Shown: positions 7,745 through 57,800 of the stretch, piece after piece
Layout: the number at the start of each line of letters is the position of its first letter
Position numbering within the stretch: the first letter of the stretch is position 1
Assembly (NCBI RefSeq): GCF_028583425.1
Contig: NC_072793.1
Span: 101,541,689-101,605,688 of the forward strand
DNA from: Eublepharis macularius
Taxonomy: Eukaryota; Chordata; Lepidosauria; Squamata; Eublepharidae
DNA length: 64,000 nt
Direction of reading: 5' to 3'
Made by a program: the position numbers and the translations under genes
The notes under the pieces: model-generated
Seen by the model: the letters and a program-made list of their open reading frames with translations, nothing else
What the model was told of the DNA's origin: nothing
The model's database searches: none

Positions 7745-8914
7745 TAGTGCTTCTCAAACAGTGGGTTGATCTTTACCATAGAGATTGGGGAAATTACTAG
7801 ACTTTCATTTCTGGATACCTGGAAGTGACATCATGGCACCAGTGACTAGAGATGGGCACGATCCACATTACGATCGGAAAAAACTCATGGTAATGGCGAT
7901 CACTCGATCATGACCTGGCGGATCGTGATCATCCACGGCCAATGATCCAGCGATCGGGAGAGGCCTGGATCATTGCGTTCGGGCTCGGATCGGGGATCCA
8001 GACACTCAGGTGCCAGCAATCTATTCCCCTGGCAATGGAGCCAGGGGAAAGCCTGAGCTCTGTTTGCCCTCCTTCTGTCGCCCTGGAAACCCGAATGGAA
8101 GCCCAGCTTTCCTTGATCAGCAGGGCTTCCTTCCAACCATGAAGCAGCAAAGCAGTCACAAGTTGGGAGAAGACACCCAGGGGAGGAAGGGGGAAGGGGG
8201 TGTTCTGTAGCCATGGGCACTCCAATCTCATCCCTGCAAACCCTGATAGGCAGCTCTGGCGGCCAAACACAGACCTCCTGTGTTGCTAAATGGGACCTGA
8301 GGGGAGGCGGATCGTCGCCACCTCCCCGTGCCCACCAGGTCTGGCGGCCGCCGCCACCACCCACCTTCCCACATAGCTGGGAATAGCAGCGCGGCCCGCT
8401 TTGGCCTCCATGATCCACGGCTCGGGAACGGGAGATGATCGGTGTGGATCGTTAATTCGGGATCGTCGCCGGCACCAATCCATGATCAGCTGGATCGTTA
8501 ATTTTTTGGGGATCGTGCCCATCTCTACCAGTGACATTCCTCTTCCTTAGGCTCTGCCCCCAAGTGCTTCTGAGAGGTAACCAGTGTAAGCCTGGCAACC
8601 CTCATCTCAGGCTCAAATTTCTAAGCTGGGAAGACTCTCTGCCTCCATCCCAGAGATGAGAAAAGCAGGGCAACTGTAGTGCACTCTTTCCTTCCCCCTC
8701 CTTTGCCCTGCACCTATATTCATCCCCAGTCATCACTGGTGGCTGTCTTGCTCCCAGCCAGAGCCACCTGCTGCGTGTGAGGTGACAGGCATAGTCTGTG
8801 CCTATTGTCCACAGGACCTGCACTTATGAATCTGAACTGAGATGAGGTAATAGGTCCCAAAAGGTAGTGTAAATTTAAAAATGGGTCCCACTCCATAACA
8901 TTTGAGAACCACTG
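7745..8914. mobile_element. Outer hAT MITE, interrupted by a second hAT element
   Basis: Ends TAGTGCTTCTCAAACAGTGG and TTTGAGAACCACTG are hAT-type inverted repeats. Flanks TAAACATA (7737-7744) and TAATAATA (8915-8922) agree at 6 of 8 sites. The younger element at 7847-8527 sits inside. Confidence 0.72.
7847..8527. mobile_element. Inner hAT MITE with 8-bp target duplication
   Basis: Terminal inverted repeats TAGAGATGGGCACGATC / GATCGTGCCCATCTCTA, flanked by perfect CCAGTGAC copies (7839-7846, 8528-8535). The interior is rich in CGATC/GATCG and has no transposase. Confidence 0.88.
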
Positions 8915-12570: not shown

Positions 12571-12760
12571 ATAATTTTTTTTGAGTTCCCTGTATGTTTC
12601 TTCCAGTGGGGCAAATATTAGTATTGGAGATCCACTGAGAAAATAGCAGGGGGGAAAAGTAAAACCCTTTCTTCTATGTCACAGCTGAACTGAGGCCTTC
12701 AACAGCTGCTGTTTTATAATGCAAAAATAATGCTGGAAATCTGATCATGGATTTATTGTC

Positions 12761-14437
12761 TTTTTTTTTAATAAAATTTTTATTGGAATTAGAATAATAT
12801 AATTTCACATTACAATCAATTCCCGTTTCCCAATTTCTAACCCCCTCCCTTTCCCCCCTTTTCTTTTGACTTCCAACAGTTTTCCAACCCTTTGTCCCTT
12901 TTCTCTTACTCATTTTAAATTCATCTATCTAACAAACATATACTTTCCCTTTAATCTAAGCAATAATTCTTTAACTATTTTTTATTACTCTAAACCTTAT
13001 CTTGGAGTCCTTTCTTCCATATTAGACAAACAATTTGTCACTTTTTAACATAATTTCATAATTTCCTGGTTTCAAATATTTCTATAAGCCATATACCATA
13101 TATACCCTATAACCCATGCATTTATATAAGTCAACCAATTTAACTTATATTCCGTATATTACTTTGTATAACTATCCTCAAAGGTTATCAATCAATTTGA
13201 TCCATATATTTCTTCAGGTAGGCTCATTCAATTTAACATATTACACGCTTATACCAGAAACAATATTAATTAGTCGGTCCTTATAATTATTTTCTCTCCA
13301 TTTTCTATATATGTATATTTTTCTGTATATAACACTCTAACAAAATAGCTGCTTAGACATTTTCATTTCTCTCTCTACCTTCCGGTAAAGTCACCCCCCT
13401 CTACATTTTGTCATATTTCAGTAGTTCTCAAACTGCCACAGTTCTCTTCCCACCTCCCATTTCTTCAACACATATTGCTTCAGCTTCTCCCAATCTGTGT
13501 TGAACTGTCCTGGGTCCAGATTTCTCAGTTTTCTTGTCATTTTGTCCATTTCGGCCATATACAGCAATTTGTAAGTCCAGTCCTCAATAGTTGGCACTTC
13601 TTGTACTTTCCATTTTTGCGCATACAAAAGTCTGGCCGCTGCTGTCATGTAAAATAGCAATGTTCTATGTTGGGCTGGAATGTTCTCCATTCCCAAGTTC
13701 AGTAGCAGGAGTTCTGGGTTCTTATTGATTTGAAATTGTAAAATCTCACTTATTACTTTTATTATTTCTCCCCAGTACTGCCTAGCTACCTCACACGTCC
13801 ACCACATATGATACAGAGAGCCCTCATGTTTTTTACATTTCCAGCATTTATTAGAAGTGTTCAGATTCCCTAGCGCAATCTTCTTTGGTGTCATGTACCA
13901 ACGATAGATCATTTTGTAAATGTTCTCTTTAATATTAGTACACGTTGTAATCTTCATTGTGTTTTTCCACAAGTGTTCCCATGCCTCCATTGTTATTTCT
14001 TTATTAAAGTTTATGGCCCACTTCACCATTTGTACTTTAACTATTTCATCTTCAGTATACCATTTCAACAGTACTTGGTATACCTTGGAAATTTCCTTCT
14101 TATCCTCTTTTAAAAGCGTCTGCTCTAGTTCCGAATTCTCTGTTCTTATGCCTCCCTTTGCACAGTCCGAGTTGTAAAGATCTCTGATCTGCCTATACTG
14201 GAACCAATCATAGTTGGGTGATAACTCGTCCTGTGTCTTTATTTTAAGTTTGAAAGATTCTATTTGGGTTATCTCCTTGTATGTTAAACACTGTTGCTCA
14301 GTATAGACAGCTCTCGGATCTATTACTTCATACGGAACTACCCACATGGGGGTTCCTTCTTGTAGGAAGTCTCTATACTTCTTCCAGGTTGCATATAGGC
14401 TTTTCCGTATGTAATGATGTAGGAACATAGAGTTCAT
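12761..14437 (-). mobile_element. L1 LINE, 5'-truncated, with poly(A) and target duplication
   Basis: Minus-strand L1 3' end: ORF2 tail, about 650 bp of 3' UTR, then an AATAAAAATTTTATT-type end and poly(A), read as T's from 12761. It is flanked by an 18-bp direct repeat GATCATGGATTTATTGTC at 12743-12760 and 14438-14455. The right copy includes TATTGTC, the first bases of the Penelope-like element, so the L1 came second. Confidence 0.9.
13418..14437 (-). CDS. L1 ORF2 C-terminal region (truncated)
   Basis: About 340 residues of the carboxy end of L1 ORF2 in one open frame ending at 13418. The family hallmarks are KMIYRWYMTPKKIALGN followed by the cysteine motif CWKCKKHEGSLYHMWWTC. The reverse transcriptase and endonuclease are absent because of 5' truncation. 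The frame runs by chance through the target duplication into the Penelope end, which adds a few non-L1 residues at the N-terminus. Confidence 0.88.
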   Translation of the reverse strand: MNSMFLHHYIRKSLYATWKKYRDFLQEGTPMWVVPYEVIDPRAVYTEQQCLTYKEITQIESFKLKIKTQDELSPNYDWFQYRQIRDLYNSDCAKGGIRTENSELEQTLLKEDKKEISKVYQVLLKWYTEDEIVKVQMVKWAINFNKEITMEAWEHLWKNTMKITTCTNIKENIYKMIYRWYMTPKKIALGNLNTSNKCWKCKKHEGSLYHMWWTCEVARQYWGEIIKVISEILQFQINKNPELLLLNLGMENIPAQHRTLLFYMTAAARLLYAQKWKVQEVPTIEDWTYKLLYMAEMDKMTRKLRNLDPGQFNTDWEKLKQYVLKKWEVGRELWQFENY

Positions 14438-14481
14438 GATCATGGATTTATTGTCGAAGGCTTTCACGGCCGGAGAACGAT

Positions 14482-14858
14482 GGTTGTTGGGGGTTTTCCG
14501 GGCTGTATTGCCGTGGTCTTGGCATTGTAGTTCCTGACGTTTCGCCAGCAGCTGTGGCTGGCATCTTCAGAGGTGTAGCACCAAAAGACAGAGATCTCTC
14601 AGTGTCACAGTGTGGAAAAGATGTAGGTCATTTGTATCTACTCAGGAGGGGTGGGGTTGAGCTGAGTCATTCTGTAAGGGTTTCCCAGGGTGTGGAATGC
14701 TAATGGTGGGAGGCTTCACTGTATCCTGAGGAGGTTCTTTTGCATATGGATTGGTGCTTGATGTGCTAATCTTCTCTGCAGGGCTATTGTCGGGTGTGGA
14801 GTGTTTTGTTGGCCTGGTGTTTTTCAGAACTGGAGCCCATGCTCTGTTCATTCTTAAG
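14482..14858 (-). repeat. Left inverted arm of the Penelope-like element
   Basis: Exact-length partner (377 bp) of the arm at 16576-16952 in the opposite orientation. It covers the C-terminal end of the ORF and the 3' non-coding end with the hammerhead-like motif. By eye the only difference is one T/C site near 14707, which changes PPTISIP to PPAISIP. Confidence 0.9.
14515..14587 (-). ncRNA. Hammerhead-like ribozyme motif, left arm
   Basis: Same fold as the copy at 16846-16918, on the minus strand and in sense with the Penelope ORF, downstream of it. Predicted scissile bond lies between 14536 and 14535. Confidence 0.6.
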
Positions 14859-16576
14859 GTTTCTTCTTTCCTGTTGAAGTTTTGCTTATGCTTGTGAATT
14901 TCAATGGCTTCCCTGTGCAGTCTGACAAAGTAGTTGGAAGTGTTGTCCAGTATTTTGGTGTCCTGGAATAAGATACTGTGCCCTGTTTGAGTTAGGCTAT
15001 GTTCAGCCACTGCTGATTTTTCAGGCTGTCCAAGTCTGCAGTGTCTTTCATGTTCTTTTATTCTTGTCTGGATGCTACGCTTTGTGGTCCCGATGTAAAC
15101 TTGTCCACAGCTGCAGGGTATACGGTATACTCCTGCAGAGGTGAGGGGGTCTCTGCTGTCTTTTGCTGATCGTAGCATCTGTTGTATTTTTCGGGTGGGT
15201 CTGAATACTGCTTGAAGGTTATGCTTTTCCATAAGCTTTCCCATCTGATCAGTAATTCCTTTGATATATGGCAAAAACACTTTTCCTGTAGGTGACTGTT
15301 TTTCCTTGGTTGTTTGATTCATCCTGGGTTTGATTGCTCTTCGGATTTCATTTCTGGAGTAGCCATTTGCCTGAAGTGCGTGGTTTAGATGATTAATTTC
15401 CTCATTGAGAAAGCGCGGCTCACATATCCGTCTTGCACGATCCACTAATGTTTTCATTATGCCTCTTTTCTGTCGGGGGTGGTGATTGGAGTTTTTGTGT
15501 AAGTACCGATCAGTGTGAGTTGGTTTCCTGTAGACCTTGTGACCTAACTGAAAGTTAGCTTTGCGGATGACCAAGGTATCCAGGAATGAGAGTTTTCCCT
15601 CACTTTCTTTCTCCATTGTGAATTGTATGTTCAGGTGGATGTTGTTGAGATGATTCAAAAACTCCCTCAATTCTTCCTCCCCATGGCTCCAAATGATGAA
15701 TGTATCATCCACAAACCGGAACCATACACTGGGTTTGTGGGGTGCTGATTCTAGAGCTGTTTTTTCAAAATGTTCCATGTAGAAGTTTGCTATAACTGGG
15801 CTGAGTGGGCTCCCCATGGCCACCCCATCCATCTGTTCATAGAATTCGTTGTCCCATTGGAAGTAACTGGTTGTCAGACAATGATGGAATAAGGCTGTTA
15901 CATCCTCTGGGAAAATCTGATTAATCAGTGCAATAGTGTCTTTTACTGGAACCTTGGTAAACAGGGATACAACATCAAAACTGACAAGTATGTCTTGTGG
16001 ATTGAGTTTCAGAGAACCGATTTTGTTGATGAAATCTGCTGAATCTTTGATGTAAGACGAGGTTTTCCCGATGTGGTCCTGCAGGAGATCTGCCAGATGT
16101 CTAGCTAATTCATATGTCGGTGAACCAATGGCACTCACAATGGGTCGGAGTGGGACTGAATCTTTATGTATTTTGGGGAGTCCATATAGTCTAGGTGGCT
16201 GTGCTTCAGTCTTGCATAGTTTTCTGTGCGTGTTGGGATGTAGTGAGGAATTCTTGATCATCGCATTTGTTAGCCTGGTGATTTTGCAAGTGGGATCTCG
16301 TTTTAGTTTTTTGTAGGTGGAGGGGTCCAGGAGTTCCTTAATCTTCTTTTTGTATTCCTCCGTTTTCATGATCACTGTAGCATTGCCTTTATCAGCTGGT
16401 AGAATGATGATGTCTGGATCTGCATTGAGGGTCTTGATGGCATTTCTCTCCTTGCGTGTTATATTGCTGGTGGGAAGCTTTGCCTTTCGTAGAATCCTGG
16501 CTGTCTCTCCTCTTATTTCCTCAGCTTCCTCTTCAGGTAGATGATGGATGGCAGCTTCTACATTTGCAATGATGTC
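14642..16576 (-). CDS. Penelope-type ORF: reverse transcriptase plus GIY-YIG endonuclease, 5'-truncated
   Basis: The frame is open from the fold-back junction at 16576 to the stop at 14642, about 644 residues. The first ATG inside it (16375) would give 577 residues. Counting from that Met: RLYGLPKIHK at 62-71, RT motif A (VSFDVVSLFTKVP, D134), motif B (GVAMGSPLSPVIANFYME, from 184) and motif C with FVDD at 221-224. Upstream of the Met the frame reads ILPADKGNATVIM, a typical Penelope segment. A GIY-YIG nuclease follows ([20 protein letters not shown], 415-434). The true N-terminus is missing, replaced by the inverted arm, so activity is unlikely even though this stretch is uninterrupted. Penelope elements use these two enzymes for target-primed reverse transcription. 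Confidence 0.88.
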   Translation of the reverse strand, partial: DIIANVEAAIHHLPEEEAEEIRGETARILRKAKLPTSNITRKERNAIKTLNADPDIIILPADKGNATVIMKTEEYKKKIKELLDPSTYKKLKRDPTCKITRLTNAMIKNSSLHPNTHRKLCKTEAQPPRLYGLPKIHKDSVPLRPIVSAIGSPTYELARHLADLLQDHIGKTSSYIKDSADFINKIGSLKLNPQDILVSFDVVSLFTKVPVKDTIALINQIFPEDVTALFHHCLTTSYFQWDNEFYEQMDGVAMGSPLSPVIANFYMEHFEKTALESAPHKPSVWFRFVDDTFIIWSHGEEELREFLNHLNNIHLNIQFTMEKESEGKLSFLDTLVIRKANFQLGHKVYRKPTHTDRYLHKNSNHHPRQKRGIMKTLVDRARRICEPRFLNEEINHLNHALQANGYSRNEIRRAIKPRMNQTTKEKQSPTGKVFLPYIKGITDQMGKLMEKHNLQAVFRPTRKIQQMLRSAKDSRDPLTSAGVYRIPCSCGQVYIGTTKRSIQTRIKEHERHCRLGQPEKSAVAEHSLTQTGHSILFQDTKILDNTSNYFVRLHREAIEIHKHKQNFNRKEETLRMNRAWAPVLKNTRPTKHSTPDNSPAEKISTSSTNPYAKEPPQDTVKPPTISIPHPGKPLQNDSAQPHPS

Positions 16577-16952
16577 TTAAGAATGAACAGAGCATGGGCT
16601 CCAGTTCTGAAAAACACCAGGCCAACAAAACACTCCACACCCGACAATAGCCCTGCAGAGAAGATTAGCACATCAAGCACCAATCCATATGCAAAAGAAC
16701 CTCCTCAGGATACAGTGAAGCCTCCCGCCATTAGCATTCCACACCCTGGGAAACCCTTACAGAATGACTCAGCTCAACCCCACCCCTCCTGAGTAGATAC
16801 AAATGACCTACATCTTTTCCACACTGTGACACTGAGAGATCTCTGTCTTTTGGTGCTACACCTCTGAAGATGCCAGCCACAGCTGCTGGCGAAACGTCAG
16901 GAACTACAATGCCAAGACCACGGCAATACAGCCCGGAAAACCCCCAACAACC
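16576..16952 (+). repeat. Right inverted arm of the Penelope-like element
   Basis: Reverse complement of 14482-14858. It starts abruptly at the shared CTTAAG and ends in CAACAACC next to the target duplication. It lacks the extra 33-nt tail carried by the left end. Confidence 0.9.
16846..16918 (+). ncRNA. Hammerhead-like ribozyme motif (type I), right arm
   Basis: The conserved boxes appear in order: CUGAAGA (16864-16870), stem II GCCAGC/GCUGGC closing a short loop, then GAAAC-GUC (16891-16898). Stem III is only the self-complementary ACGU. Stem I forms from CCU/AGG next to the core, then an internal loop, then UUUUGGUG paired with UGCCAAGA. Cleavage would fall after C16898. Position 10.1 is U rather than the usual G. 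Hammerheads with very short stem III are known in Penelope-like elements and may act as dimers. Activity is not shown. Confidence 0.6.
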
Positions 16953-16966
16953 ATTGATCATGGATT

Positions 16967-19129
16967 GCCCAGTGTCTTTTCTGGTTTGGTCCTGAATTTG
17001 GAACTTGTTTCATACTTTTGGACTCTGAAACTCACATGTATTTTACTTTTCTCTTACACGGTGAGTGAACCAAAATACACTATATTGTTTTCCGTAGAAA
17101 CCAAGCAGATGATCCAAGAATATCTCACAACCTTTAACTCCCTTGGGAAGTCATAGGAGATGGCTTTTCCTCATGATTAGGTATAGTCAACAGGCCATGG
17201 AATACTAAACCCTGTATATGTTATTTACTTGCTTGAGCCATTTATACTATTGTAGTAGATTTGTTGAGTTTCGATTTTGGAGTTCTATGAAATATGATTT
17301 GACGCATAGCATTTCATATGATTAACAGGCAGGGGGATCACACTAGCCACTAGGTGGATTTTTTTATGCTTCCTGCTCTGATGCTATGATTTTTCCCTTT
17401 CCCTTTCCACAAGAAGCAGGTGCTATATTGCAAGGTATATGGATGGGTAATCTTGGAGTATAAGCAGGGTAAAATGCAGCAGTATTTAAAGCCTATGGAA
17501 GCCTATGAAACGTCAGGAACTACAATGCCAAGACCACGGCAATGCAGCCCGGAAAACCCACAACAACCTATGGAAGTCCTTGGATAAACTGGCTTAATTT
17601 CTCTATTTGGTGATGCTGCCATTACATTCTCAACCTGATATTCTGTTTCTTACAATATTTTCTTCCACTGCCTGTGTATCTTCCAGTCCTTTCTAGGAAA
17701 AATCCTCCTGATTACCCTGTTCTCAGATGGAGCAGAAAAGTATTTCGTTCACACAATTTTTTTCAAGATCCAGGACAGGGCAGAAGTTTAGGGCTGAGCC
17801 AGACGTTCAGGGCTAAATAATTATTTCAGTTTTTTAAAAACTTCTAATTTCAATGTAGGCACAGGAGTTTTCAGCTTCAACTTAAAGACACCAATGTGGA
17901 TGAAATAACTGAACTATGGACTGGAAGAAGTGGAGAAATAGTTTATATCCACATGGTATGTTCTTTGACTTTGGGGATATGCTTATTAAATACTTCTGAT
18001 TCTTAAAAAATTAAATGGCCGCAATGCATGCTCTGTGTGTGGATAGTACAATCCACAGAACGGAAGGAAGCTCCATATTGTGTTGTATTTTCCTGTCAGA
18101 AATCCTGGTTTTCACACATCGTTTGTTGTTGTTATTGTTAGAAGTACTGAATTTGGGGCCCTGGAAAGCATAAGCTTGTATAGACATACCCTTAAGAGAA
18201 TCATTATGTGGTTTCTTTCTGATATTAAAAATAGACAGGAGGAGGATGGAATTATCACCATTTGTCTTATTATTATCCTTGTCTTGTACTGTCACCCATT
18301 AAGCACTATTGGGCAGGGCAGTCGGCTCAGTCCACTGGTTTCAGCAGAGACAGGTGCTTTTAATTAACACTCCCCTTCAGGTCCTCAATTGTACCTTTGT
18401 GTTTCCTTTTTACCATAATACCCTAATTGAATACTCTTCCTGGTAAAAAGGCACCTGACCTGACATCTCAATTGAAGCTTTTCAGAAAAATGGTAATTGC
18501 TCATTTAAATTGATTTTTATAAACCCAAAGGAGCAGACTCAGCTCTAATTTTAGTATAGTTTATATTCAAAATTGGAGTTTTAATTTTTTTTGTTCAATC
18601 CTTAACATTAGTTTATATACAGTGCATCACTGTTTTACAACACATTTTTAAAAGATTAAGTTAAACATAACATTAAACTCAATCTCCATTAATCAAAATA
18701 AAATGTATTACTTAGAAGGAATACAAAATATATCATCACTATTATTCCTTGCTAGCTTTTACCACCTCCAAAGAGAAGGAAAGCTGTAGCATTTTTCTTT
18801 CCCTGCCTTAAAGTGGGGCCCAAGCCAATTCATATTTACTCAGAAATAAAGCCCTCTTGTTTTAATGGGACTTACTCCCAAGTAAGTGTGGACAAGTTGC
18901 AAATTTACAGAGCAATGCTAAAGACACTTTTCCAGGATTACGACTTCAAGGGGACCTGTTTGAGAGTACACTGTTAATTCTTGAGATCGTAGATATTAAT
19001 TAGGAACGCTAGAATGCCTTGGGGTTGGAGGCCGGAACACCCTTAAGACCAACCTGCAAGACAACGAATGAAAACTAGTCTCATACCATAGACTAGTGGC
19101 TAGACAAGCTATGCGCGAAGGACACGTTC
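16967..19129. other. Upstream flank of BAP1, no gene seen
   Basis: No PHF7-like exon on the minus strand. A short dispersed repeat at about 18800-18910 contains AATGGGACTTACTCCCAAGT. Around 18380-18540 the sequence is compact and could be conserved non-coding DNA. Confidence 0.4.
17507..17568 (+). mobile_element. Short solo piece of the Penelope-like 3' end
   Basis: 62 bp matching the last part of the Penelope arm, from GAAACGTCAGG to CAACAACC. It sits between copies of CCTATG(GAAG), a likely short target duplication. It begins inside the hammerhead core, so only the second half of the motif is present. Confidence 0.75.
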
Positions 19130-48800: not shown

Positions 48801-51800
48801 ACTAATAGTGACCTTTGGTGGGGTTTTAATGGAAAGAGACTAACAGAAGTGGTTTGCCAGTGCCTCTCTCTGCAACCGTGGTCTTTGTTGGAGGTCTCCC
48901 ATCCAATCACTAACCAAGGCTGACCCTGCTTAGCTTCTGAGATCTGATGAGATCAGGGTCACCTAACCTAATGTTAATACCAGGCCTTAACAAAGAATGT
49001 TGTCCTTTTTGCATCTTTGCATCTTCTTGAATTGCAGCCAAAGCTGTAAGTGTTGTGTGTGTGTCTGTGGGAGGGGGGGGTCCATTGCTGTAGGACAAAT
49101 TTCTTCAGTTAAGAAAGGGTTTGATCTTCCAGAAAACTTGTGTTACCATAAAGGAGGGTGACTTGATTATTTCCTCTTCAGGCTGTTGGGAGGGGGGGTT
49201 TGACCCTCCCCAAGGGGGCAACATATATGTGTATGGAAATTTGGGGCTGCAGTAGAAGTGGGGGGAGTGAGGAATTTGCACTCTGTTAATGGGAATCCCT
49301 TCTGCCAGTGGAGATTTTCCATGGGACCCAAGCCCCTGGATTCTTATAAATAGCATACTCCTTTATGAAGGACTTGTTTCTAATATCTCATACAAACTGT
49401 ATATTTGATAGAAACTAGGTGACTAACAAAATCAGAAGCTCCTAAGAGTATCCATGCACTGCAAGAGGCTCAGGGCCTTCTTGAATGGCAAAAGAGATGT
49501 GGATCAGCAGTGCCCTTCTTAGTCAACAAAAATACTGGCTTAACGGTTCATTGTGCCCAGTTCCTTTCCCTGGCAGTTGATGCTTTATTGGTATTAATGT
49601 ACTAGTTTGGAGAATGTGACAGGCAGAGATATAACCGGTATTAAGAGCTGGGGCAAAGTAAAATAAAACGAGTCCAGTGGCACCTGATAGTCTTTAGCAA
49701 AATTTATTCCAGCAAAAATGATGTATGTCAGAGCTCACTTCATCAGATATGATGAAGTCATGTTAATCCATGTTTTATTTTGCTGCTGTGGATTAACATG
49801 GCTACCCATCTGGAATTATCATCCAAGTTAAAGTAACCACTATACCTGATCACCTCCTGTATTAAAACTGTATTCATGGACTCCTCATACAGCACAGGGT
49901 ATTTCAGCATCACTTCCTGTAAGTTGATGGGTTGAGGTACCTTCTCCAATATGTCTTTTGAGGATTCCTCCACAAGCTACAAAATGGATGGAAAGGAGAA
50001 AAAAAAAGCTGTTTGGAGGTAGAGAGGTTCAGAGATGGCTTATTATTTAATTGGATGACAGAAGAGAGACCTTTGTCCAAGTGGAAGTTAATTACTTTCT
50101 AGTATAAGCTCCCTACTTACTTTTAGAATTTAATTACAATTGTGCTTTGGGGCTTACTTGAAGGCTATTTTGCCTTCCCCTCACTCTCCAGCAATAACAC
50201 TTCAAGACATTTGGTATTTGAACTTGTTATAAGAAGCCTCATACAGTGGGAAAAATCTAGAGCCAGGGATATAAATACTCCACATTAAAAAAATAACACC
50301 ATAAATTCTGCTCCAAAAAAGGATGGATTCTGTCCTATGTATAAATTACGCTATGGTCAAATTTGCACAATTATCTGCAATTTAGTCATGACAAAGAGCT
50401 GCGCAGAAAGCATTGGAAACGTTTTCCCGCTGGTATCTGAAATTTTTTAGCAGGCATTGACTATGTGTTTTTGAGCATATTTTTATAGCCATAAGGGCTA
50501 GAAACATGTTTGCTTTAAATGACAACTGAATTCTGTATCCTATATCATATTATGTGCTCCCCTCTCCCCCATGTCTACATTCTTGAGGAACTGTGGCATA
50601 TACTAGGGGTGTGTGCCAAGAGAGATTTGGTTATTATTTCAGATCCATGACACAAGGGGAGAAACTTTATGGTGATTGCTGATTTTCAGGGAGGACAGTA
50701 CCAGTTCAGGAATCAAATCCACGTTTTAGGGGGAGGGGTCTGGTATTTTGGGACCATTATTTCCAATGGGGAACTAATTCAAGGATTTGGAACAGGTTTT
50801 TAAAGATAATGGCACAAAATTTGCATAGAACACAGCTCTCAGTGTAATCTAAAGACCTCTAGATTTCAAACAGAATGGACAAAGAATATTCTCTACACTG
50901 CTTCCTATAGGAGAAAAACAGCACTGGCCACCACCACATTTAAAAAATTCTGTCGGCATCCATTTTTAGAAAGCAATCTTACAATAATAATTTAAACAAA
51001 AATAGAGCACATGTTTTGTGATTGCCTGTGATGAATCAATCATAGGATTGCTATGAGATACATGTCTTCATACTGGGCATTCACTGTAAGGGTAGTAATT
51101 AGTACTGCTCCTATTTAAGGAATCCCTGGAGAAGGAGGAGGACAAGGCAGTGAAGGGCTGGAGCATGAGAGTCTGAGGGCTAAGCCACATATCTTTATGA
51201 GTTGTCTCCAGATTTACTGCTTTGATCAGGGTCACATATCAGCTCCAAGAACTTTGTTTAAAAGCCTATCATAGAAGTTGATTTTGCTGACAGGTGGCAT
51301 AGATGGAGGAGGGGGTTCTTCTTCCTGATCCTAGCCTTTTCCCTGATCTTAAAGAACTACCAGAAGAAAACGATTTGCATAAATTTGGAGCTGTACATGC
51401 AGTAGTCTCAGCACTCACAGCTTGGCACAGACTCTTTCACAGAAATTCCTTCTCTGAGGCTTGTGTCCAAAGGTGATTGATTGCCTGGGAGTACTCACTT
51501 CCCGATCCCTTGCAAGGATCTGATTGAAAGGGAGAAATGCCACTGCCTGGAAACTTCGGGAATCCAAGAAAAACAAGATGTTGATGGATTTTACGGGGTG
51601 TTTTACATAATTTCTAAGAATTCCAGATTTGTTTGGTGTTCTTGAAAATCATGGTAGCAAAACTGCAATTTTTGTATGTATTTTCAGCTTGGGAATTTCA
51701 GGCTGAACGTACATTGTTCCTGAATGTTTGACACTGAGAGATCTCTGTCTTTCGGTGCTACACCTCTGAAGATGCCCGTCACAGCTGCTGGCGAAACGTC

Positions 51801-54800
51801 AGGAACTACAATGCCAAGACCATGGCCATACAGCCCGGAAAATCCACAACAACCATTGAACGTACAGCCTTTTCAGCTTGGGAATTTCGAACCTAATATA
51901 CACACAACCCTGTCTAAAATGGAATATCTAGATAAAGAGAGAACTGATGTGGAAAAGCCATTCAAGCAATGGGTTTACAAACCTCTTCCCTGCTTCGCCC
52001 TCCTGCAGTTGATGTTTTGGGCTGAAGTTGAATAATGGCCCCAAGCAACGCAAAGGTCTCATTCTGAGCAAAGGTGATGTTAGCATTGTCATGCAAACCA
52101 AATATCTCAGGCATGTCATTGAGGGGGAGGCTCTTGATGTATTGAATGTATCCCTGCAGAAAAATCAACATGCAGCACAATGAGGAGGAGTATCTTTTAT
52201 AAAGACCCCAACTGTAGAGAAACGAGAAAGAAAAGGGAGAAAATCCAGTGACAGCACAGTACTCTTTCTAATTGGCTTCTTGACCTAACCTATCTCAGTA
52301 GTATTACCTGAGTTATATATTCACAAGCGGGGGACTTGTGGTGGGGAGCTCTCATCCTTTCTCCCCAGCATGGCAATATTGGCTCCCACTGTCCCAGTCC
52401 CTTGCCTGGCTGCTTACAGCACAGCTGCCTCTGCCTGCCCAGCACATGCAGTGGCTCCTGTGCCTCCTCTCCCACCCATCTTTTTCAAAATTGTGGCAGA
52501 GATCTCATGACTTGAGGTTACAAGGTCAGTCTTTCCTCCCAAACATTAAAAAAAAATTCTTTTGTTTTTTTCCTGCAAACCTAGGCTTTTCATTCCCTCC
52601 CCTCCCCCCAGGTCTATAGGAAAATACCTCTTTCAGAATTTTCTCCGAAATGGGGATGAAAAGTGTCTTACAACCAGGGCTTTTTTCTGGGAAAAGAGGT
52701 GGTGGAACTCAGTGGGTTGCCCTCGGAAAAAATGGTCACATGGCCAGTGGCCCCGCCCCCTCACCTCCAGACAGAGGGGAGTTTAGATTGGCGGTGCGGA
52801 GGGCAATCAAAACTCCCCTCTGTCTGGAGATCAGGGGGCAGGGCCACCGGCCATGTGATCATTTTCAAGAGGTTCTGGAACTCTGTTCCACCGCGTTCCT
52901 ACTGAAAAAAAGCCCTGCTTACAACATTGTTCTCCCTTCCTTCCTTTTTTCCTTACAGCAACAACTTTGTAAGGTGAGTTAGGCTGAGAGTGATTTGCCC
53001 AGGATCACCCAGTGAACTTCCATGAAAGAGTGGGGATTTGAACCCTGATCTCCTACGTAGTTTGACATGCTAATTTTAAACCAAAATTAGTATTTTATAG
53101 TAGTTTATTGTCACAATCTGTCATAACTTTTTTTCAAGAAGAGCTTCACTTGAGAGAGAAATTAATAATTCAGACAGACTTCCAGAAACACAATTCACTT
53201 TTTGACCAGTTTGCTGAATGAGGCAGAGAAAAGGACATACAGGGGGCTTACTAAATGTTACGTTCTGTCAATCAGACATGGACAGTAAGTTCTTTGCTCA
53301 CAACTCAGTTCCCAGGAGCACAGGGGCAGTGCATGTCTGATTGACATAACTTAGGGAGGTCACAAGAAAAATGTAGTATGGAGTAAAGTCCTAGGAGCCA
53401 AGGTTTTTCCTATGGGGCAGTATATTTGTCTTCTATTTTGTTCAACTTACATTAAGGTCATAAGTGGTATTAATCTGTTTATAGATACCAGATTCTGAAT
53501 AACAAAACTCTGGAATTAGAACATTTGGATTGTAGAAATCTTCTAAAATATTCATAATGCAGCGTCTATCCCAATCGTCTGTAACTCGACCTCCATAGTT
53601 AATCTCACCAGCTGTGTATTTCAGAACCTGCAATAGACCAGAAAGTAGAAATGACAGCAAAGATTTTGATTTGGATCCAAATATTTCTGTACATCCACAG
53701 AAGATTTTCTAGTTCCCAATTTTTGTTTGCAGCCCTCTGCACTCCCCATCCCAAAAAATTATGCACAATATGGTGGTGTGTGTGTGTGAGTAAAATCCAC
53801 CATCCTCATGCATGCAGAAGAACAAGGGTTTTGGGGTCCAAGCCCTTATCTCTATGTTGATCTCTACTTTCCACAACTCTTCCCTTTTTTTGGTCCAGAT
53901 ATGACAGAAAGGTGACAAACATAAACCCACATTGGTCCAACTCAGCTACTCCAAGATGCATTTCAAATGTTAGATCCTTTGACAGAGAATCAAGGGCAGA
54001 TCTCATTGAACTCAAGAAAACAACCACTGCATTTAAACAATTACAACAACAGGAACTCTTCTGAGGACAAAACTGTAATCACAAACTCTCCAATTCAACC
54101 GTCACATATATTTAAAGTGCAAGTGCTCAAAGCAAAAATAGTACTCTAAATATCATTTCATCATAAATATCAGTATCACTTGCAATTTAAATATATGACT
54201 GTTGGATTGGAGAGTTTGTGATTAGTTTTGTCCTCCGAAGACTTCCTGCTGTTGTAATTTCCATTTTGGAATCCAGGACAGCCTTGTTTGTATACAGGAT
54301 TTAAACAATTACAAGCAGGAAATCTACAAGGACTTGTCGGGGCATCTCATTTCCCCCTCCTCCACCATTTCTTCTTTCCCTTCCCTGAAAACCCTATTGC
54401 CTCTCCTTTTTTGCTTCTTTCTCTCCTTTCTGCCTACCAATCAATCTACTTTTTATTCTACTCTCACATCTGGGCTCCATCTTGATGGCAGCCATTACCA
54501 CATGGAGCTAACAAAGGGCTGGAAGCCCAGACAAAGGCTCAGGTAATGGGTGACTGGAAGAATGCTACAATTTTATAACAGTAAAGAGCCTACCCTAGAA
54601 TAACAATAGGGCATGTTTAGCCAAGGAACAGAGAATTGCGAGTAGGTACCTTTATTTTGTAACCTTGCTCGATCCATTGCTGTGATTATGTATGTGAACA
54701 TTTTATTTAAATACAGTTCTTATTATTTTAAATGCTGGAAGTTTGTTCTACCTAATCACAAAAAGCCCCATATGAACATGTTACTGAAAGGGCACCATGG

Positions 54801-57800
54801 GAATAGAGGCAGTTGATCTCTAGATCCCTAGTAGTGCACAGGTGCAGTAAGCAATCCCTGGAAAGGCTAGTTGGAGGGAAAGCAGGAGATGGGGCTAGGT
54901 GGAGCAAGTTAATGGCAATGCAAATGCAGCGCTGGCCCCCTTAATGGAAAATGGTCTGATCAACCCCCTAAGGGCAATGAAAATACTCAGAAAAAAAGGA
55001 CCCCTCCCCCAGGAGTTGGGTGGGATTGGGAATGCAGTGCGCTGCCAGACAGAGACCTAGGACAACCAGTGAGGATCTTGATCTCTCAGCAGATCCATTC
55101 AGTGGCATATACTGTAACAGTGTTTTAACCCCCAGAATATGTGTGCATTTAGATTTCCATTTTTTCCTGCAAACTGGAAAGGTTTGTCAAAAGATCTGTC
55201 TTCTCTGTACATGGCCCCTATCTCAGGATTTAAGTATCCACTAAAACGGTTATGTTGAGAATTAGAGCTCAAAAAATTCTCCCAAAAGTTTATGGCTAGA
55301 TGAAGGCCCTTTATTTAGACCAGTCCTAATTAATCTGGTTCAAACATTTAACTAGTTTAAACTGAAGACACCTATAGTTCTTGTGGCCAGATGATCCTGA
55401 ATCACAGAAGGAGAAAAGTGCAGTTGGTATGTATGTGTGTGTGTTATGTGCCATCAAGTCGTCTCCGACCTATGGCGACCCTATGAATGAAAGACCTCCA
55501 AAACATCCTATCATCAACAGACTTGCTCAGCTCTTGCAAACTGGAGGACGTGGCTTCTTTTATTGTCAAGCCATCTCATTTTAGGTCTTCCTCTCTTCTA
55601 CTGCCTTCCACATTTCCTAGCTTTGTTGACTTTTCCAGAGAATCTCGTCTTATGATGTAACCAAAGTACAATATGTATTGTCGAAGGCTTTCACGGCCGG
55701 AGAACGATGGTTGTTGGGGGTTTTCCGGGCTGTATTGCCGTGGTCTTGGCATTGTAGTTCCTGACGTTTCGCCAGCAGCTGTGGCTGGCATCTTCAGAGG
55801 TGTAGCACCAAAAGACAGAGATCTCTCAGTGTCACAGTGTGGAAAAGATGTAGGTCATTTGTATCTACTCAGGAGGGGTGGGGTTGAGCTGAGTCATTCT
55901 GTAAGAGTTTCCCAGGGTGTGGAATGCTAATGGCGGGAGGCTTCACTGAGTCATTCTGTAAGAGTTTCCCAGGGTGTGGAATGCTAATGGTGGGAGGCTT
56001 CACTGTATCCTGAGGAGGTTCTTTTGCATATGGATTGGTGCTTGATGTGCTAATCTTCTCTGCAGGGCTATTGTCGGGTGTGGAGTGTTTTGTTGGCCTG
56101 GTGTTTTTCAGAACTGGAGCCCATGCTCTGTTCATTCTTAAGGTTTCTTCTTTCCTGTTGAAGTTTTGCTTATGCTTGTGAATTTCAATGGCTTCCCTGT
56201 GCAGTCTGACAAAGTAGTTGGAAGTGTTGTCCAGTATTTTGGTGTCCTGGAATAAGATACTGTGCCCTGTTTGAGTTAGGCTATGTTCAGCCACTGCTGA
56301 TTTTTCAGGCTGTCCAAGTCTGCAGTGTCTTTCATGTTCTTTTATTCTTGTCTGGATGCTACGCTTTGTGGTCCCGATGTAAACTTGTCCACAGCTGCAG
56401 GGTATACGGTATACTCCTGCAGAGAACCTCCTCAGGATACAGTGAAGCCTCCCACCATTAGCATTCCACACCCTGGGAAACTCTTACAGAATGACTCAGT
56501 GAAGCCTCCCGCCATTAGCATTCCACACCCTGGGAAACTCTTACAGAATGACTCAGCTCAACCCCACCCCTCCTGAGTAGATACAAATGACCTACATCTT
56601 TTCCACACTGTGACACTGAGAGATCTCTGTCTTTTGGTGCTACACCTCTGAAGATGCCAGCCACAGCTGCTGGCGAAACGTCAGGAACTACAATGCCAAG
56701 ACCACGGCAATACAGCCCGGAAAACCCCCAACAACCAAAGTACAATAGCCTCAGTTTTGTCATTTTAGCTTCTAGGGAAAATTTAGGCTTGATTTAATCT
56801 AGAACCCACTTATTTGTCTTCTTATTTGTCTTTACAGTAAATGATAATTGGTTAAGGCAGCATAATGTAAAGGTTGTATGTCTCGGTAGAAAGCCCAGCA
56901 GGAATTCAGTCAAGCTTTCATGAAACCTACTATACAAAATAATTTTTCAATAACTGAAGTAGAGAAATTCTCTGGTTTAGGGGACTTTTATTAGCAGGAG
57001 AATATGGATAGCAAAATAAAACAGATAAGATCCATGAACTGGGCAAATAGGTAGTTTCCCACAACATAAAGGAGACTTTTAAAATGGTTGTGTAAAATGT
57101 CATAATGTCCTATCCAAGCATATCAAGTATGGCCTGGTTATATTTTGTTGCATTACCTGGGTTACAAGCTTCCACTGCTTCTCTACAGAATACAGAAGAA
57201 ATTAAGGCAAACGTTTTCATCCAAAGAGACTCAATTCCAAGCCATTTAAGAATGTACCAACTAAGATTGCAAGCATATTCTCACCACACCCCCAATATTA
57301 GGCCATTCCTTAGAGGCTCTATCTCTTTACACATATCTCCACAGTTCTCATTCCAACTATTCATCTTACTTTGTAGGGGATATCTTTATATTCATCCAGG
57401 AACATCTTCAGCTGGCTTATGCAAATGCGCAAATCTCCATCAGTGAACTCATAAGGAATATTGAAGCCCAATGGCCCAAACTTCCTCCTTTCCAGGGCAT
57501 TCCCATGGAAAAGGCAAAGGGAGAAGAGCAATGACTTGAACTCAGAAATCTGTAAGGTACAGAATGTATTAATACATACAGCATGTCTACTCAGGTGTAC
57601 CTGATCCCAAATATGTTCACGTTGGTTCTAAATATCACAAGCTAAAGTGTTAAAATAATGAGTTTAGGTTTAAATTTCATGCTTTCAGGACTGAAATGGT
57701 AAGTGAATCTTGCCTGCCTTCATCCCATGACTGAAAGCTGTTCATCAGGAAAAAGGAATATTTCTACTAACAATTACTTCTAAAAAGACTAAGGCACCCT

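What the first reader, a model, noticed from the sequence alone, without database searches (positions are those of the whole stretch)
14449..16966. Fold-back Penelope-like element: both ends are inverted copies of its own 3' end
A 377-bp arm at each end (14482-14858, 16576-16952) differs at one base by eye, while the 5' part of the ORF is missing and replaced by the inverted copy. One 12-bp target duplication surrounds the whole, so it entered as a unit. The simplest reading is that reverse transcription switched onto its own product during insertion. Inverted ends are known for Penelope in Drosophila; such a clean, young case in a squamate is worth a close look.
Basis: partly seen in the sequence, partly recalled or inferred. 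Interest (0 to 1): 0.8.

Follow-up and report, generated by a model that had tools for sequence, protein, structure and literature searches.

The report
Penelope retroelement copied from both ends
A young Penelope-type jumping gene in what looks like a reptile genome has mirror-image ends, and dozens of sister copies suggest that its enzyme copies RNA of one source twice, once from each end of the cut DNA and each time from a different fixed start point, which would explain a long-standing puzzle about these elements.

Summary
The element (14449-16954) is a 5'-truncated Penelope-like element (Poseidon type) with ~378-bp inverted arms that differ at one CpG site, flanked by a 12-bp target duplication. 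The left copy of that duplication was later duplicated again by an L1-type insertion (12761-14436), so the true host flank ends at 12753.

The structure is common in this genome, not an oddity. All 82 independent inverted insertions whose two outer ends I could read have exactly one arm ending at an outer RNA start site (with a ~31-nt 'tail') and one ending at an inner site. The sites correspond to those that bound the tail of the anole element studied in vitro. Single-ended insertions use both sites. Arms within an element share source variants (36 concordant, 0 discordant, 51 pairs). In 20 of 55 insertions the tail-less arm reaches at least 100 nt farther, so neither arm can have been copied from the other. 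This contradicts 'switching onto its own product' as the general cause.

Best explanation: both 3' ends of the staggered cut prime reverse transcription on RNA of one source (probably one molecule), one at each start site, and the two cDNAs are joined, often through microhomology. The family is known; the one-of-each rule and its mechanism are the new part.

The parts
14449..16954 (-). Penelope-like element (Poseidon type), 5'-truncated, with an inverted copy of its 3' end at its 5' side
14449..14479 (-). 31-nt 'tail' between the inner and outer RNA start sites; present on the left arm only
   Evidence: the sites lie at ORF +77-86 (inner) and +110-120 (outer) in sister copy L068
14480..14858 (-). 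left arm (tail arm): the part shared with the inverted right arm
16576..16954 (+). right arm (inverted, tail-less, ends at the inner start site); joined to the body with a 3-nt overlap CTT
14642..16375 (-). truncated ORF: reverse transcriptase and C-terminal GIY-YIG-like endonuclease
   Evidence: RVT_1 E 1.3e-12; T5orf172 E 0.0042 on the C-terminal piece, just below its cut-off
14437..14448 (.). target duplication copy next to the element, part of the second copy of the L1-type insertion's 19-bp duplication
16955..16966 (.). right copy of the 12-bp target duplication
12742..12753 (.). original left copy of the 12-bp target duplication, now separated by the L1-type insertion
12761..14436 (-). 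later L1-type insertion into the element's left edge (19-bp duplication 12742-12760 / 14437-14455, which includes 7 nt of the tail)
   Evidence: L1 identity by eye, no Pfam match to its ORF
14536..14570 (-). hammerhead-ribozyme-like core in the left arm (CTGAAGA ... GAAACGTC)
   Evidence: by eye and by comparison with the anole RNA printed in PMC11167929; Rfam found nothing at E<=1
16864..16898 (+). the same hammerhead-like core in the right arm
   Evidence: as above
55676..56737 (.). second inverted insertion of the same family in the window; tail on the left, 15-bp target duplication 55659-55673 / 56733-56747; both arms carry a 57-bp tandem duplication

Best explanation
The inverted ends come from two target-primed reverse transcriptions in one insertion event. 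The endonuclease makes a staggered cut that gives a target duplication of mostly 12-15 bp (shown: the duplications). Each of the two 3' DNA ends primes reverse transcription on RNA from the same source element (shared source shown by shared variants; priming by both ends inferred from the structure and from the in vitro work on the anole enzyme), probably on the same RNA molecule (inferred). The RNA offers two start sites about 31-35 nt apart near the start of the ORF; one DNA end uses the outer site, giving the arm with the tail, and the other uses the inner site, giving the arm without it (the one-of-each pattern is shown: 82 of 82). Each reverse transcriptase stops somewhere along the RNA or runs off its 5' end (inferred). 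The two cDNAs, which have the same sense, are joined where short stretches are mutually complementary, or with a few filler bases (microhomology excess shown; joining enzyme unknown). The result is a unit with mirror-image ends and one target duplication.
For: One tail and one inner end in 82 of 82 independent inverted insertions with both ends read (78; L097; L114 with L127; L091+L137 and L140). Apart from L038-L040, no two share flanks on both sides (which did not include the two insertions read by their ends only, L062/L063 and L066/L067). Target duplications of 9-16 bp around the whole. Single-ended copies use both sites (6 with tail, 6 without), so mixing is not forced by a rare site. In 20 of 55 the tail-less arm reaches >=100 nt farther, in 11 the tail arm: neither can be a copy of the other in the 20. 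Shared source: 51 pairs, 36 concordant and 0 discordant minor alleles at 18 non-CpG sites; shuffled pairings average 35.7 discordances, never under 15 in 2000; within-pair differences 10/18319 against 3437/707988 between. A rare 57-bp duplication (264 places against 3921 for its boundary) sits in both arms of 28 outward pairs among the first 100 places listed (56 of 100 places; about 4% expected). Near-equal arm ends outside the 5'-end cluster: 5 of 34 against 0.74 expected, P 0.0003, as if both ran off one RNA end. Microhomology 0/1/2/3/4+ nt: 8/5/11/4/5 against 18.6/9.3/3.5/1.2/0.5 under a simple random model. In vitro, the anole enzyme cuts and extends both strands and starts at two sites that bound the tail (PMC11167929).
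Against: One RNA molecule is not separated from two RNAs of one source by allele sharing. Three insertions (L077; L091/L137; L138/L139) have the 57-bp duplication in one arm only; all their arms keep the linked C variant, so I read this as slippage, but two RNAs would also fit. One of the five near-equal cases (L097) lies close to the recurrent q2052/2055 junction, and hotspots for stops could inflate that test. The in vitro study saw no difference in start site between strands and, in what I read, reports no coupling. The predicted hairpins at the two start sites are not clearly more stable than shuffles (z -1.7 and -0.4). Only one family in one genome was tested. Some copies are single-ended (3 of the 28 places read in the similarity sample), so pairing is not obligatory.
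Confidence: 0.7

Rival explanations
1. Fold-back copying: the first cDNA folds back, or the enzyme switches onto its own cDNA and copies it, making the inverted arm.
For: Arms share source variants. Some junctions are exact palindromes, e.g. GTAC where both arms end in L017 and L023. In the window element, and in 11 of 55 insertions in all, the tail arm reaches >=100 nt farther.
Against: In 20 of 55 the tail-less arm reaches >=100 nt farther; the tail cannot have been copied from it, nor its extra sequence from the tail arm (in L030 and L083 the extra sequence is a segment reached by an internal jump). The copy would also have to stop at the inner RNA start site in every case. Of five near-symmetric insertions outside the 5'-end cluster (GTAC pair left out), four have the tail-less arm longer by 1-13 nt.
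Confidence: 0.07
2. Paired initiation on two RNA molecules of one source: an asymmetric enzyme dimer, each subunit with its own RNA, in which one subunit can start only at the outer and the other only at the inner site.
For: Fits the one-of-each rule, and the shared alleles if both RNAs come from one source locus. Single-arm 57-bp duplication in three insertions. The anole protein is predicted to dimerise (PMC11167929).
Against: Needs an asymmetry that the in vitro data do not show. Does not predict near-equal arm ends at scattered positions (5 of 34).
Confidence: 0.2
3. Self-priming on an antisense transcript, as proposed for rotifer Penelope elements (PMC3846280).
For: Palindromic junctions and oppositely oriented promoter motifs were cited there.
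Against: Does not explain why the tail-less arm ends at the position of a sense-RNA start site in 82 of 82 insertions, nor the unlike reach of the arms.
Confidence: 0.03
4. DNA-level origin or assembly artefact (inverted duplication, fold-back DNA transposon, palindromic read chimaera).
For: Inverted terminal sequences with target duplications resemble fold-back transposons superficially.
Against: Target duplications of 9-16 bp surround the whole in 82 of 82; arm reach varies between insertions; the arms end at RNA start sites; the ORF is a reverse transcriptase.
Confidence: 0.02

Closest known systems
Poseidon_Ac (PAc), Penelope-like element of Anolis carolinensis (PMC11167929; main text parts 1-3 of 4 read)
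   Same: N-terminal 78 aa 65% identical to sister copy L068. Outer site at the same ORF position: +110-120 here, 111-118 in the paper's text; the inner site here (+77-86) lines up with ACAACAACCC at +75-84 in PAc, which I infer to be the paper's second site because the tail is said to lie between the two. Hammerhead-like core; tandem units.
   Different: Inverted insertions and the one-tail rule are not discussed in what I read ('inverted' occurs once in the main text, for a blocked 3' end).
Penelope of Drosophila and Pen families of the rotifer Adineta vaga (PMC3846280; passages and Discussion seen)
   Same: Inverted pLTRs, target duplications of 8-10 bp in the passages seen, an optional 31-bp tail on one of the inverted pLTRs.
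   Different: There the tail is called optional and inversion is explained by self-priming on antisense RNA; here exactly one tail per inverted insertion, in 82 of 82.
L1 twin priming (recalled, not read)
   Same: Both DNA ends of a cut prime reverse transcription and the products join, often with microhomology.
   Different: In L1 the second priming is internal and gives an inverted 5' part without duplicating the 3' end; here both start at fixed sites and the 3' end is copied twice.

Membership tests
Penelope-like element, endonuclease-containing (Penelope/Poseidon) | reverse transcriptase domain | tested here: met
   RVT_1 E 1.3e-12
Penelope-like element, endonuclease-containing (Penelope/Poseidon) | C-terminal GIY-YIG endonuclease | tested here: inconclusive
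   motif VYRIPC...VYIG by eye; T5orf172 (GIY-YIG relation recalled) E 0.0042, 18 bits against cut-off 20
Penelope-like element, endonuclease-containing (Penelope/Poseidon) | tandem units forming pLTRs | tested here: met
   three same-strand neighbours at 2668-2669 bp among the first 100 places, e.g. C1:22143753/22146422
Penelope-like element, endonuclease-containing (Penelope/Poseidon) | tail of about 30-40 nt, optional at the 3' end | tested here: met
Penelope-like element, endonuclease-containing (Penelope/Poseidon) | hammerhead ribozyme in the pLTR | tested here: inconclusive
   core letters match the anole ribozyme by eye; no Rfam match at E<=1; activity not tested
Penelope-like element, endonuclease-containing (Penelope/Poseidon) | placement in the RT tree next to telomerase RT | not tested
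   no tree was made; relation rests on the 65% identical N terminus
Fold-back DNA transposon | transposase-mobilised inverted repeats with fixed structure | tested here: not met
   RT ORF, variable inner ends, outer ends at RNA start sites

The most novel reading that the evidence does not exclude
Penelope-like elements insert by a coupled, paired target-primed reverse transcription: one RNA molecule carries two start sites and each is used exactly once, one from each 3' end of the staggered break, so the inverted, one-tailed structure is the normal product and not a repair accident.
Probability: 0.5. Interest if true: 0.78.

Novelty: new member of a known kind. Interest (0 to 1): 0.6.

Why it matters
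How Penelope-like elements insert is an open question (PMC11167929 and PMC3846280 both say so in what I read); their inverted ends and optional tail have been described without an agreed cause. A strict one-of-each rule in 82 independent insertions, with both arms from one source, ties the tail, the two in vitro start sites and the inverted ends into one testable mechanism. It would also be a natural example of an enzyme that copies RNA into both sides of one cut.

Tried and rejected
Considered and rejected: fold-back copying (see rivals); amplification of fold-back copies as fixed units. The 83-bp mini fold-back is present at 24 exact places; of 23 read, the tail is on the 2052 side in 15 (L114 included, through its far end) and on the 2055 side in 8, with different target duplications, so the same junction seems to have formed repeatedly. 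The 198-bp spacing seen three times is one insertion duplicated with its flanks (L038-L040).

An apparent double-tail pair (C1:77535827/77536072) was resolved as one-tailed: the left hit is internal. L094 first looked as if it began exactly at the hammerhead cut (q2041); the target duplication shows that it begins near q2053 with filler, so I drop that. The first tail-scoring script used too short a window and scored 38 rows as having no tail at either end; it was redone. A first flank-independence check was swamped by the tail and redone. With L077 included, the allele test has 40 differences in 18601 sites, 30 of them from misalignment at its duplication, and 36 concordant against 0 discordant alleles; CpG sites were left out (22/1029 within, 1737/46114 between). 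An empty-site search with joined flanks did not test it, because the left flank proved to be the L1-type insertion. A protein search for a second Penelope family in 326 kb of fetched and window sequence found none.

Rows set aside before the 82-count: L064/L065 with L088 (complex locus with internal pLTRs; its other outward pair, C1:15199194/15200474, was not fetched); L138/L139, L095, L099, L100, C1:5148100 and C1:8027900 (an outer end not read or not clear); L101/L102 with their extensions (no duplication found, two copies of one event); L029 (fetch too short); L087 (direct double pLTR); L039 and L040 (same event as L038).
Full report
CHECK. The arms 14482-14858 and 16576-16952 are real and differ at one CpG site, 14707/16727. 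The repeat TGATCATGGATT flanks the whole at 14437-14448 and 16955-16966. The minus-strand ORF has a reverse transcriptase domain, and the N terminus of the family, read from sister copy L068, is 65% identical over 78 aa to the Poseidon element of the green anole. The same 12-mer also occurs at 12742-12753 (two further exact matches, at 8477 and 42196, have unrelated surroundings by eye), and 12742-12760 equals 14437-14455 over 19 bases. The 19-mer contains the first seven bases of the element, so an L1-type element (12761-14436) inserted into the element's left edge afterwards; the 38 other matches scored for the joined-flank probe all stop at exactly 14436. The original left flank therefore ends at 12753.

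THE FAMILY. The window lies in a 2.24-Gb genome of 72 contigs (species not named; 'squamate' rests on the relation to the anole element). I count q along the sense strand of the window copy, with q2127 at 14449. A 31-base probe of the arm end (q2065-2095) has 7317 exact places, the control none. Among the first 100 places (C1, 1.6-42 Mb), neighbours within 6 kb are 35 pairs with ends pointing outward, 4 same-strand (three at 2668-2669 bp, the unit length, and one at 5539 bp) and 1 inward. A second sample was chosen by similarity to the 377-bp arm: one search lists 32 places (40 of 880 candidates scored), of which I read 28 (window plus 27 fetched): 24 inverted, 3 single-ended (L011, L016, L028), 1 too short to tell (L029). 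Two more inverted copies lay nearby (L013a and 55676-56737 of the window). So inverted ends are the common form.

ONE TAIL EACH. I read both outer ends of 82 independent inverted insertions: 78 by script (80 insertions, of which L038-L040 are one event duplicated with its flanks), L097 by reading (the script mis-scored it because its window overlapped the other end), L114 through its far end in L127 (target duplication read by eye from the print), and L091+L137 and L140. Of the 35 outward pairs in the first sample 34 were fetched; one of these (L064/L065) belongs to a complex locus and is set aside. In 82 of 82 one end lies at the outer site (ORF +110-120) and one at the inner site (ORF +77-86) (positions). 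The tail is left in 40 and right in 40 of the 80 scripted rows. If each end chose at random, the chance would be about 2e-25. Target duplications are 9-16 bp, mostly 12-15; the two of 9 bp (L019, L117) are the weakest. Single-ended copies use both sites: six with tail (L016, L028, C1:5240050, L090, L092, L094) and six without (L011, C1:1639220, C1:4672320, C1:5339195, and window 17507-17568 and 51729-51856); some may hide a very short second arm, and the target duplication is unclear in L092 and C1:5339195. Genome-wide, 3170 places have the arm end continued exactly through the tail, against 7317 arm ends, which fits about half carrying it, with some tails mutated. Among the 100 tail places listed there, three outward pairs had a tail at both hits: one is the complex locus set aside, one involves an internal pLTR of a tandem copy (C1:22141350/22143753, whose outer ends are one-tailed), and one was resolved as one-tailed.

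NOT A COPY OF ITSELF. For 55 insertions with full sequence, leaving out the mini class, the tail-less arm reaches at least 100 nt farther in 20 and the tail arm in 11 (difference not significant, P 0.15). A short arm with a tail cannot have been copied from a longer arm that lacks it, nor the reverse. In L030 and L083 the farther reach is by a segment beyond an internal jump; it is still absent from the other arm. The window element is of the other kind (tail arm longer), so it alone does not decide.

ONE SOURCE. In 51 arm pairs (L077 left out because of misalignment at a duplication), non-CpG differences are 10 of 18319 within pairs and 3437 of 707988 between. At 18 sites with variants found in two or more elements, 36 minor alleles are shared by both arms and none is discordant; shuffled pairings give 35.7 discordances on average and never fewer than 15 in 2000. 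Fifteen private variants are in both arms, ten in one. A 57-bp tandem duplication is present at 264 places against 3921 for its boundary, yet 28 outward pairs among the first 100 places have it in both arms, and so has the second window copy. Against this, three insertions have it in one arm only (L077, L091/L137, L138/L139). All their arms carry the linked C variant (GGGAAACTC), so slippage on one haplotype is the simpler reading, but two RNAs are not excluded. I did not read the other unpaired duplication places.

STOPS AND JOINS. Both arms end at q1940-2000 in 14 of 55, and several single or tandem copies begin at q1969-1971, which suggests an RNA 5' end there; an Inr-like CCACACT lies at q1961-1967 (consensus recalled). 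Outside that cluster, near-equal arm ends (within 15 nt) occur in 7 of 36 against 0.9 expected, or 5 of 34 against 0.74 without two that meet at a GTAC palindrome, as if both enzymes ran off the same RNA end; one of the five, L097, lies close to the recurrent q2052/2055 junction. Of 55 junctions 33 have no filler; their overlaps of 0/1/2/3/4+ nt number 8/5/11/4/5 against 18.6/9.3/3.5/1.2/0.5 under a simple equal-base model, and 22 have 1-36 filler bases. Because the two cDNAs have the same sense, overlap means mutual complementarity, which can also explain palindromic junctions without self-priming.

MECHANISM. Shown: unit insertion with one duplication, one end at each start site, common source, arms not copied from each other in at least 20 of 55, microhomology at joins. 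Established in vitro for the anole enzyme (PMC11167929, main text parts 1-3 of 4 read): cleavage and extension of both strands, two start sites that bound the tail. Inferred: both ends prime on one RNA molecule, each start site used once. If the inner site is used first, the outer one remains free for the second enzyme; the tendency of tail-less arms to reach farther (17 against 7 at >=300 nt, P 0.064) fits but is weak. Both start sites fall in predicted loops rich in A and C here and in the anole RNA, but the folds are not clearly better than shuffles.

KNOWN AND NEW. Inverted pLTRs and an optional tail on one of them are described for animal Penelope elements, with self-priming on antisense RNA proposed (PMC3846280, passages and Discussion section); a curation guide also mentions inverted pLTRs and short 3' extensions (PMC8969392, passages). 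Passages of PMC12910113 and PMC7599744 add nothing on this. I saw no statement of the one-of-each rule or of paired priming in the listings of eight full-text searches and in these papers; Craig 2021 is not held and Arkhipova 2006 was not looked up. The element is a new member of a known kind; the rule is the interesting part.

Noticed in passing
window 12761-14436: L1-type element, 5'-truncated, inserted into the left edge of the Penelope-like element after it; its 19-bp target duplication includes 7 nt of the element. Gives a relative date for both.
   Followed up: yes
window 51729-51856 and 17507-17568: Two older tail-less single fragments of the same family; the first has rearranged flanks in which CAGCTTGGGAATTTC and TGAACGTACA are both repeated (by eye).
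   Followed up: partly
L087 (C1:47677300-47677850) and L127 (C4:148819700-148822600): Direct double pLTRs with only about 150-180 nt of ORF between, as if the enzyme ran off one RNA 5' end and jumped into the ORF of another; a possible route to tandem pLTRs.
   Followed up: partly
L037, L052, L055, L106-L125: 83-bp mini fold-back with one exact junction (q2052/q2055, CA overlap) that seems to have formed repeatedly: 24 exact places, tail on either side.
   Followed up: partly
q1858-1914 of the element (e.g. window 55676-56737): 57-bp tandem duplication polymorphism, apparently with slippage between arms; usable as a marker of template identity.
   Followed up: partly
tail-less ends of the 78 oriented insertions: The second base of the target duplication on the tail-less side is A in 50 of 78 and the first C in 33; the duplications were extended to the longest match, so this overlaps the CCAT of the inner start site. 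Possible 1-3 nt primer-template pairing, though the in vitro study reports no homology.
   Followed up: no
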